Below are positions 60,676 through 63,004 of a stretch of DNA of 64,000 nucleotides, piece by piece (position 1 is the first letter of the stretch; each line of letters opens with the position of its first letter). Source of the stretch: Myxococcus fulvus (GTDB lineage: Bacteria; Myxococcota; Myxococcia; Myxococcales; Myxococcaceae). Made by a program: the position numbers and the translations under genes. A model generated the notes under the pieces. It was not told the DNA's origin, ran no database searches, and saw nothing but the letters and a program-made list of their open reading frames with translations. The DNA lies in contig NZ_FOIB01000002.1 in NCBI RefSeq assembly GCF_900111765.1, positions 744,001-808,000 of the forward strand. Direction: 5' to 3'.

Positions 60676-62178
60676 ATGCGAGTCGCGATGAAGTGGTTGT
60701 TGGCTTGGACCTGGCTGGCCCTGCTGGCCGCGTGTGGCGACAAGGCCACGCACGATGATTTCGACACCGGACAGGACGCCATCCTGCCCGACGCGCGGAC
60801 CCTGCCCTGCACCACGCTCCAGTTCGAGCGCGGCGCCCTGCCCTCGGGCCAGAGCGTCCAGGGGCTCAACACGCAGACGTTGTCCGGAACGCAGGACCGC
60901 TGGGCCGAGTACGTCGAGTTCGCGCCGAACAGCTCCGCCACGTGCACCCATCCGCTGCCCACCGGCGTGAGCGCGGACAGCGTCGTCGCGGCCGAGGTCG
61001 GCGTGAACTACCGAGGCCCCGCGAAGGCACAGATGCGCTGGGTCATCGAGGCGTGGGACTACTCGACGAACAGCTGGGCCCTGGTGGGTGACAACACCTT
61101 CGCGCAGTCGTGGCGCTGGACGGCCACGTCGCTGGCCCTGCCCACGCCCGCGCGCTTCCTGGCCGGCGGCCCGGTGAAGCTGCGCTACCGCACGGACTCC
61201 ACCGCCGATGCGTCACTGCTGGACCTGCTCGTCGTGCGCGTACAGGTGGCGGCGAGCGACGCGGGCACTCCCACCGACGCGGGGACTCCCACCGACGCGG
61301 GGACTCCCACCGACGCGGGGACTCCCATCGACGCGGGGACTCCGACGGACGCGGGCACGCAGGTGCCCTGGTCGAACGTGAAGAGCTTCACGTACCAGCT
61401 CACCAACTATCCGCAGGGGAAGCTCGACGCGATTGCCGCATCGAAGTTCGACCTCGCCATCGTGGAGCTCGTGCGCGACGGTTCCAGCGGCTACTTCACC
61501 GCCGCGGAGATTTCGGCGCTCAAGGCCCGGGGCAAGCAGGTGCTCGCCTACTTCGAGATTGGCGCCATCGAGGAGTACCGCCCCGAGTGGAGCCAGGTAC
61601 CCGCGGACCTGAAGCTCGGCCCCGTGTCCGGCTGGCCCGACGAGCAGTACGTGAAGTACTGGGACGAGCGCTGGTGGCCCATCGTCCAGGGCCGTATCGA
61701 CCGCGCGCTCGCCGCCGGCTTCAACGGCTGCTACCTCGACATGGTCGTCACGTACGAGGAGATTCCCGCCAACTCCGCCGGCACCAACCGCGCCGACCTC
61801 GCGCGGAAGATGGTGGCCCTCATCGCGCGCATCAACACCTACGCGAAGGCGCGCAACCCGGACTTCAAGGTGGTGCCGCAGAACTCACCGGAGCTGGTCG
61901 ATGACCCGGCCTACCTGCCCGCCATCGACGGGCTGGGCATGGAGGACATGTACTGGTCCGACGACGTGGCCTGCGACGAGGGCTGGTGCGAGGAGAACCG
62001 CACCAACGCCGCTCGCGTGCGCGCCGCGGGCAAGCTGGTGCTGTCCACCGACTACGCCACGCAGTCCGCCCACGTCGCGGATGCGTACACCCGCTCGCGC
62101 GCCGCGGGCTTCGTGCCCTACGTCACCGTGCGCGCGCTGGACCGAGTGACGGTGAACGCGGGATGGGACCCGCAGTAG
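60676..62178 (+). CDS. GH114 endo-alpha-1,4-polygalactosaminidase-like lipoprotein
   Basis: 500 residues. Lipobox LAAC (Cys20), then a beta-sandwich-like module (about 40-195), an Asp-Ala-Gly-Thr-Pro spacer (residues about 195-228) and a C-terminal TIM-barrel glycosidase (about 230-500). The barrel shows YFEIGAIEEYRPEW, GCYLDMVVTYEEI and VVPQNSPEL, with acidic residues at the expected strand ends of GH114. Family enzymes cleave alpha-1,4-galactosaminide in exopolysaccharides. An outer-surface location would suit matrix remodelling or attack on other microbes' biofilm. ATG 60676 follows GAGGAG. Confidence 0.88.
   Translation: MRVAMKWLLAWTWLALLAACGDKATHDDFDTGQDAILPDARTLPCTTLQFERGALPSGQSVQGLNTQTLSGTQDRWAEYVEFAPNSSATCTHPLPTGVSADSVVAAEVGVNYRGPAKAQMRWVIEAWDYSTNSWALVGDNTFAQSWRWTATSLALPTPARFLAGGPVKLRYRTDSTADASLLDLLVVRVQVAASDAGTPTDAGTPTDAGTPTDAGTPIDAGTPTDAGTQVPWSNVKSFTYQLTNYPQGKLDAIAASKFDLAIVELVRDGSSGYFTAAEISALKARGKQVLAYFEIGAIEEYRPEWSQVPADLKLGPVSGWPDEQYVKYWDERWWPIVQGRIDRALAAGFNGCYLDMVVTYEEIPANSAGTNRADLARKMVALIARINTYAKARNPDFKVVPQNSPELVDDPAYLPAIDGLGMEDMYWSDDVACDEGWCEENRTNAARVRAAGKLVLSTDYATQSAHVADAYTRSRAAGFVPYVTVRALDRVTVNAGWDPQ
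61258..61359 (+). repeat. Tandem 18-bp repeat encoding DAGTPT spacer
   Basis: Six 18-bp units, the fourth carrying Ile for Thr and the last ending DAGTQV, link the two domains of the GH114 protein. Near-identity of units suggests recent slippage expansion. Confidence 0.9.
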
Positions 62179-62194
62179 CCCAACCCCGTGGGAA

Positions 62195-62229
62195 CACCGC
62201 GCCTCGGACAGTCCACACGAGGCGCGGTG
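62195..62229. terminator. Bidirectional terminator, GH114 / XRE gene
   Basis: Perfect 12-bp inverted repeat CACCGCGCCTCG / CGAGGCGCGGTG with an 11-nt loop, between convergent stop codons 62178 and 62237. Confidence 0.8.
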
Positions 62230-62236
62230 CCCTGCT

Positions 62237-62449
62237 TCATCGCTCCCAGCGGAACACCGCCTCGAGCGGCTTGCCGAAGACCTCCGCGATGCGGAACGCC
62301 GTCTCCAGGCTGGGCGAGTACTTGCCCGCTTCAATCGCGGCGATGGTCTGACGCGTAAGACCGACCTTCTCGCCGAGCGCGGCCTGCGTCATCTCGCCCG
62401 CGAGGAAGCGCAGCGTGCGGATCTCGTTGGTCAGCCGAGGCTCAGGCAC
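62237..62449 (-). CDS. Small XRE-family helix-turn-helix regulator
   Basis: 70-residue Cro/C1-type DNA-binding domain. Helices 2 and 3 are in MTQAALGEKVGLTRQTIAAI, followed by YSPSLETAFRIAEVFG. It is entirely the HTH and has no sensor domain. The start is GTG 62449, overlapping the upstream membrane gene by 8 nt, so translation is coupled. Small HTH proteins paired with a membrane protein of this type usually act as repressors of their own operon; the palindromic promoter at 62910-62950 is a natural target. Confidence 0.88.
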   Translation of the reverse strand: MPEPRLTNEIRTLRFLAGEMTQAALGEKVGLTRQTIAAIEAGKYSPSLETAFRIAEVFGKPLEAVFRWER

Positions 62450-62882
62450 GCAAGCCCCGGCGGTAGCCCGACACCGTCAGGCCCGTGTGCACCAGCTCCG
62501 CGATGACGATGGCGAGAATCGCCGCGTTCGCCACCTTCCAGCCACTGGCGCCGAACGGCATGATGCAGCCGACGAGAATCATCCCGCCCATCAGCACGTA
62601 GTACGCGACGGACGCGGAGCGGTGCGCGATGGCCCGGTCGCGCTCGTCGGGCTCGGTCCGCTCGCCCGGCGCCCGACGCATCCGGCCGACGAGCGCCGAG
62701 ACACCGAGCACCACGCCCTGGAACACCGCCGACGCGGTCAGCATGATGAGCTGCGACCAGAACGTGAGCTCGCCCCGCGCGTCCAGCACCGCGACCGCGG
62801 TGAAGTACGTCCCGTAGCTGACGACGAGCAACACCAGGAACACCCACGCGAACCGCTCCCGGGACGACATCTGCGTCTCCAT
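62442..62882 (-). CDS. Membrane protein partner of XRE regulator
   Basis: 146 residues with four hydrophobic helices (about 10-30, 41-63, 90-108 and 115-137) and a charged loop between helices 2 and 3 (RMRRAPGERTEPDERDRAIA). The layout is of the type seen in proteins that accompany YozG-like XRE regulators, but the family cannot be named with certainty. ATG 62882 follows GGGAG. It lies first in the operon and overlaps the regulator gene by 8 nt. A role as membrane sensor or anti-repressor is plausible inference. Confidence 0.78.
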   Translation of the reverse strand: METQMSSRERFAWVFLVLLVVSYGTYFTAVAVLDARGELTFWSQLIMLTASAVFQGVVLGVSALVGRMRRAPGERTEPDERDRAIAHRSASVAYYVLMGGMILVGCIMPFGASGWKVANAAILAIVIAELVHTGLTVSGYRRGLRA

Positions 62883-62909
62883 AGAACCGCTCCCTTCACA
62901 TGCCGCACA

Positions 62910-62950
62910 ATGTTAAGCACACCCGACTCCATGTCAAGAATGCTTAACAT
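62910..62950 (-). promoter_or_regulatory. Sigma70-type promoter framed by a perfect inverted repeat
   Basis: ATGTTAAGCA (62910-62919) and TGCTTAACAT (62941-62950) are perfect 10-bp inverted arms 31 bp apart centre to centre, about three helical turns. Read on the minus strand, TTGACA (62932-62937) is a perfect -35, and TAACAT (62910-62915) after 16 bp is a -10. One arm covers the -10, the other lies just upstream of the -35. The AT-rich arms stand out in GC-rich DNA. A likely operator for the XRE protein. Confidence 0.75.
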
Positions 62951-63004
62951 CCCTCCAAAGGCCCCATCGGCACTCCGAAAGCGCTGTCCGAAAGAAAAAG
63001 ACCC

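What the first reader, a model, noticed from the sequence alone, without database searches (positions are those of the whole stretch)
62910..62950. Perfect inverted repeat over a consensus promoter for the XRE pair
A perfect 10-bp inverted repeat, with arms three helical turns apart, brackets a TTGACA-N16-TAACAT promoter for a membrane protein and an HTH protein. The layout predicts autorepression by the encoded XRE protein, possibly lifted by its membrane partner.
Basis: partly seen in the sequence, partly recalled or inferred. Interest (0 to 1): 0.5.

Follow-up and report, generated by a model that had tools for sequence, protein, structure and literature searches.

The report
Self-repressing switch with membrane partner
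A small DNA-binding protein and a membrane protein are made from one promoter that carries two side-by-side docking sites for what is very probably that same DNA-binding protein, so the pair looks like a self-contained switch that may be released by a signal at the cell membrane; related pairs with the same kind of site occur in distant bacteria.

Summary
The perfect 10-bp inverted repeat (62910-62919 / 62941-62950) and the TTGACA-N16-TAACAT promoter are real. Such repeats are common in the window (7 centres), but in this intergenic region one is unexpected (3 of 5000 shuffles). The two arms are not one operator. Relatives show the unit is a 20-bp palindrome, ATGTnAAnnATnnTTnACAT. Here it lies at 62931-62950 (14 of 14 positions) and its right half holds the -35 box. 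A weaker copy follows after 1 bp (62910-62929), good only in the half over the -10. The palindrome precedes the membrane-XRE pair in 23 of 25 non-redundant loci (leave-one-out) and 7 of 9 held-out plasmid loci. It occurs once in the 10.8-Mb genome, with no copy at 1 or 2 mismatches. The pair is an 826-bp cassette missing from the same junction in 9 of 27 genus genomes. Best reading: a CylR2-like XRE autorepressor whose 4-helix membrane partner, with a conserved DERDxxI loop, probably relays the releasing signal. Autorepression is well supported by comparison; the membrane step is inferred; nothing was tested at the bench.

The parts
62931..62950 (-). O1: 20-bp palindromic operator ATGTTAAGCATTCTTGACAT; right half contains the -35 box
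   Evidence: 14 of 14 fixed positions of the family consensus; leave-one-out score 24.2 bits, 0 of 500 shuffles; only 0-mismatch site in the genome, none with 1 or 2 mismatches; 20 of 20 identical in the sister genome
62910..62929 (-). O2: second 20-mer GAGTCGGGTGTGCTTAACAT, 1 bp after O1; right half TTAACAT intact over the -10, left half degenerate
   Evidence: 6.1 bits, the only other position of at least 4 bits in the 64-kb window; offset +21 has the highest mean score across 25 loci, though a second site of >=4 bits sits there in only 6 of 21 loci
62941..62950 (.). distal arm of the reported inverted repeat (= left half of O1)
62910..62919 (.). proximal arm of the reported inverted repeat (= right half of O2)
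62932..62937 (-). -35 hexamer TTGACA
62910..62915 (-). -10 hexamer TAACAT, spacer 16
62442..62882 (-). 4-helix membrane protein, 146 aa from ATG 62882; relatives align from the ATG at 62870 (142 aa), which has GGAG 6 nt upstream
   Evidence: ORF; starts read; hydropathy peaks near residues 23, 55, 101 and 129; AlphaFold helices 7-36, 41-69, 80-107, 112-145, mean pLDDT 72.3; weak DUF2178, below cut-off
62237..62449 (-). XRE (HTH_3) protein, 70 aa, CylR2-like; its start overlaps the end of the membrane gene by 8 bp (GTGCCTGA)
   Evidence: HTH_3 E 3.3e-15; PDB CylR2 1utx E 1.1e-8; overlap
62195..62229 (.). 12-bp perfect stem (62195-62206 / 62218-62229) with an 11-nt loop between the convergent XRE and GH114 genes; possible terminator, without a T-run
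   Evidence: the terminator scan found none
62179..63004 (.). 826-bp cassette (promoter, operators, two genes) between the convergent GH114 and EamA genes
   Evidence: GH114 and EamA ends lie 9-70 bp apart (between aligned ends) without it in 9 of 27 genus genomes

Best explanation
This is the autoregulated promoter of a two-gene signalling cassette. XRE dimers bind the 20-bp palindrome O1, covering the -35, and, more weakly and perhaps helped by the first dimer, the adjacent O2, covering the -10. They shut RNA polymerase out and keep the operon at a basal level. The membrane protein sits in the inner membrane. In response to a membrane or extracellular signal it captures or alters the XRE through its cytoplasmic face (N-terminal MSxxEK, the D-E-R-D-x-x-I loop, C-terminal YRRG), which frees the promoter and raises both proteins. 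Shown: the sequence, the promoter match, the recurring operator, the single strong copy in the genome, and co-conservation of the pair. Inferred: dimer binding, repression, cooperativity, the cytoplasmic side of the loop, and the membrane-dependent release.
For: Operator upstream of the pair in 23 of 25 loci at <=5/500 shuffles, leave-one-out; a 24th (L042) has three such sites further upstream, ahead of an apparently longer reading frame. Held-out plasmid loci: 7 of 9 at <=4/1000. Specificity: 37 sites of >=10 bits in 3250 bp upstream of the pair against 4 in 92,270 bp elsewhere in the same 25 loci, 3 of those 4 being the L042 array and one overlapping the start codon in L031. Offset +21 has the highest mean score (z=4.8; left halves alone z=3.3). 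No copy at 1-2 mismatches elsewhere in the genome. Between sister genomes O1 has 0 of 20 changes and the proximal arm 0 of 10, against 4 of 11 between them. XRE directly downstream on the same strand in 28 of 29 loci. HTH residues RQT in 28 of 28 XREs; loop Asp in 36 of 36 membrane proteins (both sets include near-duplicates). Nearest solved relatives include the repressor CylR2.
Against: No binding, transcript or phenotype data. O2 here has only one good half-site, and a second site of >=4 bits at +21 is seen in only 6 of 21 loci; others have it at +41, +45 or +47 (7 of 21), at another offset, or not at all. The left-half profile has a near-equal peak at offset 13 (z=3.1). L048 keeps both genes yet scores only 3.0 bits (8/1000), L053 gives 31/1000, and L016 is weak (15/500), so the operator is not universal. 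The gene order is reversed in L045 and L053. The consensus was first seen by eye in these loci, and the training set was found by homology to this pair. No contact between the partners was tested.
Confidence: 0.75

Rival explanations
1. The two outer arms form a single operator bridged by one protein or by two half-bound dimers three turns apart.
For: The arms are a perfect 10-bp inverted repeat, unexpected in this intergenic region (3/5000), and identical in the sister genome.
Against: Relatives share the 20-bp unit. Half-sites 31 bp apart are too far for one 70-aa XRE dimer (inference); modelled XRE motifs have a spacer of about 12-14 bp (PMC12565409, Results part 1 of 2). The distal arm pairs 8 of 10 with the -35 region (read).
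Confidence: 0.08
2. Toxin-antitoxin-like pair: the membrane protein is harmful in excess and the XRE both represses the operon and protects the cell.
For: Two small overlapping genes, the membrane gene first; the XRE has a sub-threshold match to HipB-type antitoxins (TIGR03070, E 5.4e-10, 39.1 bits against cut-off 71.65); the cassette is sporadic and was gained or lost as a unit.
Against: The XRE is a bare 70-aa HTH with no extra neutralising segment. The membrane protein has no toxin-family match in Pfam, NCBIfam or PADLOC, which would miss an undescribed one.
Confidence: 0.12
3. The XRE acts as both activator and repressor, as restriction-modification controller (C) proteins do with adjacent operators (recalled).
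For: Two adjacent dimer-size sites of unequal strength; distant similarity to PADLOC 'Control_protein' (E 1.1e-5).
Against: The stronger site covers the whole -35, which is a perfect consensus needing no activator; its centre is near -37.5 of the start predicted from coordinates. The adjoining genes are EamA and GH114, not a restriction or methylase gene.
Confidence: 0.06
4. The promoter is repressed by another regulator and the XRE acts elsewhere.
For: No binding data exist.
Against: No other site within 2 mismatches exists in the genome. The operator recurs beside this XRE type in distant bacteria and is absent from the 9 empty-site loci L063-L071 (best scores -6.4 to 0.0 bits).
Confidence: 0.05

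Closest known systems
CylR1/CylR2 (Enterococcus faecalis cytolysin regulators)
   Same: Small XRE repressor related to this XRE (PDB 1utx, E 1.1e-8) encoded with a small multi-helix membrane protein thought to relay the inducing signal; no phosphorelay (PMC3709268 passages; PMC11343131 passages).
   Different: CylR2 represses a neighbouring lantibiotic operon from a promoter overlapping its own; here the only strong site in the genome is the pair's own promoter. CylR1 has 3 predicted TM helices; this partner has 4. Homology of the partner to CylR1 and identity of the operators were not tested.
SdpR/SdpI (Bacillus subtilis)
   Same: Autorepressor plus polytopic membrane protein in one operon; the membrane protein sequesters the repressor when it meets its ligand (PMC1626106 passages).
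   Different: SdpR belongs to the ArsR family (recalled, not tested), and its toxin operon lies next door. No ligand gene is recognised here.
DUF2178 (PF09946) membrane proteins next to XRE genes
   Same: Weak match of this protein (16.8 bits, cut-off 22.8); a Streptomyces relative (L045) passes the cut-off (25.6 bits) and has the operator (0/1000).
   Different: The window protein is below the cut-off. In L045 the XRE gene comes first. 'DUF2178' is found in no paper of the held library.
Catalogued XRE palindromes (PMC12565409)
   Same: Palindromes upstream of XRE genes, bound by the XRE in 9 of 10 of that paper's tests; spacer about 12-14 bp (abstract, Results part 1 of 2, legends and found passages seen).
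   Different: The motif table is in supplements that I could not open, so I cannot say whether this motif is among its 223 clusters.

Membership tests
CylR1/CylR2-type regulator pair | 66-70 aa XRE protein homologous to CylR2 | tested here: met
   phmmer E 1.1e-8 to 1utx over residues 10-69
CylR1/CylR2-type regulator pair | adjacent gene for a small multi-helix membrane protein | tested here: met
   4 predicted helices, 8-bp gene overlap
CylR1/CylR2-type regulator pair | membrane protein homologous to CylR1 | not tested
   CylR1 was not fetched; a 90-aa partner in Priestia (L053) shares the DER motif and a just-below-cut-off DUF2178 match
CylR1/CylR2-type regulator pair | palindromic operator over the regulator's promoter | tested here: inconclusive
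   a palindrome over the promoter is shown by comparison, but binding was not tested and CylR2's own operator was not available to me
CylR1/CylR2-type regulator pair | controls an adjacent lantibiotic operon | tested here: not met
   neighbours are EamA and GH114 genes; no second operator within 2 mismatches in the genome
DUF2178 | score above the Pfam gathering cut-off | tested here: not met
   16.8 against 22.8 bits
SdpR/SdpI-type sequestration | membrane protein binds and holds the autorepressor | not testable with these tools
   needs localisation or pull-down
Type II toxin-antitoxin (HipB-like) | score above the NCBIfam cut-off for the antitoxin | tested here: not met
   39.1 against 71.65 bits

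The most novel reading that the evidence does not exclude
A widespread, horizontally moving class of minimal transmembrane switches: a receptor-like membrane protein whose D-E-R-D-x-x-I loop docks its own co-transcribed CylR2-like autorepressor, written on DNA as one to three copies of ATGTnAA-N6-TTnACAT over a sigma-70 promoter, often 21 or 41-47 bp apart. It would be shared by members of at least five named phyla (Pseudomonadota, Actinomycetota, Bacillota, Cyanobacteriota, Acidobacteria), with the receptor's own operon as the only strong target in this genome.
Probability: 0.35. Interest if true: 0.65.

Novelty: new variant of a known kind. Interest (0 to 1): 0.42.

Why it matters
How CylR1 passes its signal to CylR2 is described as not understood (2013 review PMC3709268, passages), and a 2024 preprint says the prevalence of that system in other gene clusters has not been explored (PMC11343131, passages). 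A compact relative with a sharply defined operator and one invariant loop residue would let the same kind of question be asked in a harmless laboratory strain, and the motif gives a way to find such cassettes in genomes.

Tried and rejected
Outer-arm-only operator: rejected on conservation and geometry. Wider regulon in the genome: the operator pattern at <=3 mismatches gives 21 places, one perfect and 20 with 3 mismatches, none with 1 or 2; the reversed control gives 6. Of these 20, five came back as loci (L056-L060) and five more were taken out (L088-L092); I opened only one, L088, a palindrome at the start of an ArsR-like gene divergent from an SRPBCC-like gene (both names by eye, no family search). 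So weak secondary targets are not excluded. Defence or phage origin: no PADLOC (E<=0.1) or PHROGs (E<=0.001) match for the membrane protein, only HTH matches for the XRE. Fold search with the membrane model (mean pLDDT 72.3, pTM 0.61): of 74 matches at E<=10, 0 at E<=0.001, uninformative. Two XRE paralogues in the genome at 38-40% identity (L011, L012) were not examined.

Literature: 'DUF2178' in 0 papers; 'COG1476' with operon and membrane protein in 2 papers, off topic by title, not opened; YozG/YoaS/DUF2975, 1,750 papers, the 20 listed off topic by title; at least 3 of XRE family, membrane protein, autorepress, TTGACAT: 5 papers listed, none opened; other listings. The CylR2 structure and operator paper (PMC517608) is not held.

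Rows dropped before counts: from the 28 pair loci, L006 and L034 (near-duplicates) and L036 (doubtful start) were left out of the 25-locus model; L027 had no XRE. In one search four of the 25 had no TTGAC-bearing first site, or none at all, and fell out of the offset count (21 left). In one search all 25 were used, with L042's origin moved 300 bp upstream by hand. Of 230 plasmid records with a match, 30 were listed and 10 opened, chosen from the listing before their upstream DNA was seen; 9 were scored as held-out. L054 was left out because no membrane partner adjoins its XRE (best score in the locus -3.4 bits). L048 (8/1000 at 3.0 bits) and L053 (31/1000) count as misses. The class and phylum searches used E<=1e-10 and scored only part of the first-look candidates per genome, so pair counts there are lower bounds.

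Full report
OBSERVATION. The inverted repeat and promoter are as described. Perfect repeats of this length are common in 64 kb (7 centres), but in the 122-bp intergenic region 3 of 5000 dinucleotide shuffles give one, and only this one of the seven has AT-rich arms. The core word TGTTAAGCA is found nowhere else in the 10.8-Mb genome, and the full repeat occurs once.

ANATOMY. On the minus strand the promoter is followed by a 146-aa membrane protein (62882-62442) and, overlapping it by 8 bp, a 70-aa XRE protein (62449-62237). Relatives of the membrane protein mostly begin at the residue equivalent to Met5 (ATG 62870), so the true start may be there. The XRE matches HTH_3 (E 3.3e-15); the membrane protein matches DUF2178 only below its cut-off.

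WHAT THE OPERATOR IS. The membrane protein was searched in its family (96 genomes) and in genome contigs (4 loci). A profile of 8 sequences (A1) was then searched in its phylum (195 genomes), two classes (385 and 369) and another phylum (396). Together they give 29 distinct loci, the window included. In 28 of the 29 the XRE gene lies directly downstream on the same strand (the printed -82 bp for L014 comes from an over-extended frame start). Reading their upstream DNA showed a shared 20-bp palindrome, ATGTnAAnnATnnTTnACAT, usually with TTGAC inside its right half. A leave-one-out weight matrix on 25 non-redundant loci finds it at <=5/500 shuffles in 23 and at 0/500 in 22. The exceptions are L016 (15/500) and L042 (61/500); in L042 three sites, 21 and 47 bp apart, lie 326-394 bp upstream of the start I used, ahead of an apparently longer reading frame. 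In nine plasmid loci not used for the matrix it scores at <=4/1000 in seven (Streptomyces, Novosphingobium, Pseudoalteromonas, Niallia, Acaryochloris, Rhodococcus, Paenibacillus); Priestia gives 31/1000 and Embleya 8/1000 at only 3.0 bits. In the Streptomyces and Priestia loci the XRE gene comes first and the site was sought ahead of it. In the 25 loci 37 sites of >=10 bits fall in 3250 bp upstream of the pair and 4 in 92,270 bp elsewhere; three of the four are L042's own array and one overlaps the start codon in L031.

TWO TANDEM SITES. The window's best site is 62931-62950 (25.3 bits); the only other position of >=4 bits in 64 kb is 62910-62929 (6.1 bits), 21 bp further on. Averaged over 25 loci, +21 scores highest of the offsets 11-69 (z=4.8); the left half alone, which the -10 box cannot explain, also peaks there (z=3.3), although offset 13 comes close (z=3.1). 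The pattern is not general: of 21 loci with a TTGAC-bearing first site, 6 have a second site of >=4 bits at +21 (window, L007, L013, L014, L024, L037), 7 at +41, +45 or +47, a few elsewhere and some none. In the sister genome O1 is unchanged (0/20) and the proximal arm is unchanged (0/10), while the 11 bp between them carry 4 substitutions, so O2 in this lineage is in effect one good half-site.

SINGLE STRONG TARGET. The genome holds one perfect copy, none with 1 or 2 mismatches, and 20 with 3, against 6 for the reversed control. Of the 20, ten were available as loci and one was opened; it lies at an ArsR-like gene. Weak secondary targets are therefore not excluded.

ORIGIN. The pair is in 2 of 27 genomes of the genus. 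In 9 of 27 the EamA and GH114 genes lie side by side without it; in the remaining 16 of 27 GH114 was not found within the 1.5-kb flank. The cassette is 826 bp. Its membrane gene has the host's GC3 (95.2% against 94.4 and 93.2 for the neighbours), the XRE somewhat less (87.3%). Gain by insertion is the simpler reading; several losses are not excluded.

MECHANISM. XRE residues RQT in the predicted recognition region are invariant in 28 of 28, which fits a shared operator. In 36 membrane proteins the loop Asp is invariant (36/36), with Glu 31/36, Arg 33/36, Asp 28/36 and Ile 32/36 around it; the ends MSxxEK and YRRG are common (near-duplicates included). Hydropathy and a moderate-confidence model give four helices with this loop between helices 2 and 3. 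The cytoplasmic side is inferred from the charges. I infer that these faces contact the XRE. Evidence for repression is positional: O1 covers a perfect -35. Cooperativity and signal are unknown.

KNOWN RELATIVES. The nearest solved relatives of the XRE are a PbsX-family regulator (9k3w, E 7.1e-12) and CylR2 (1utx, E 1.1e-8). CylR1/CylR2 is a membrane protein and XRE repressor pair whose signal relay is described as not understood (PMC3709268, passages only); a preprint reports related pairs in bibacillin gene clusters (PMC11343131, passages only). SdpI/SdpR works by membrane sequestration of an autorepressor (PMC1626106, passages only). The pair works like these. It is not filed as a CylR1/CylR2 member, because no lantibiotic operon is controlled and partner homology was not tested.

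ORGANISM.

Noticed in passing
62179-63004: The whole two-gene unit is a cassette missing from the EamA-GH114 junction in 9 of 27 genus genomes, with its own promoter and a stem-loop at its end. Flanking repeats were not searched for.
   Followed up: partly
62868-62882: Two in-frame start codons (ATG 62882 and ATG 62870); relatives support the second, and the sister genome has a 1-bp indel just before the first.
   Followed up: partly
62895-62901: A lone half-site ATGTGAA on the minus strand, 49 bp after the start of O1 and conserved in the sister genome, near where some relatives have a further operator.
   Followed up: no
L088:1295-1314: AT-rich near-palindrome ATGTTATAATTCTATAACAT at the start of an ArsR-like gene divergent from an SRPBCC-like gene (names by eye); probably an unrelated operator in the same genome.
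   Followed up: partly
L048:617-766: Embleya keeps the membrane gene and XRE, but the 150 bp upstream score at best 3.0 bits for the operator.
   Followed up: no
L053:1415-1687: A 90-aa membrane partner follows the XRE in Priestia and carries the same DER motif; its DUF2178 match is just below cut-off (22.3 against 22.8 bits).
   Followed up: partly
61258-61359: GH114-family gene with tandem DAGTPT-type repeats in the linker between its two domains (residues 195-228).
   Followed up: no
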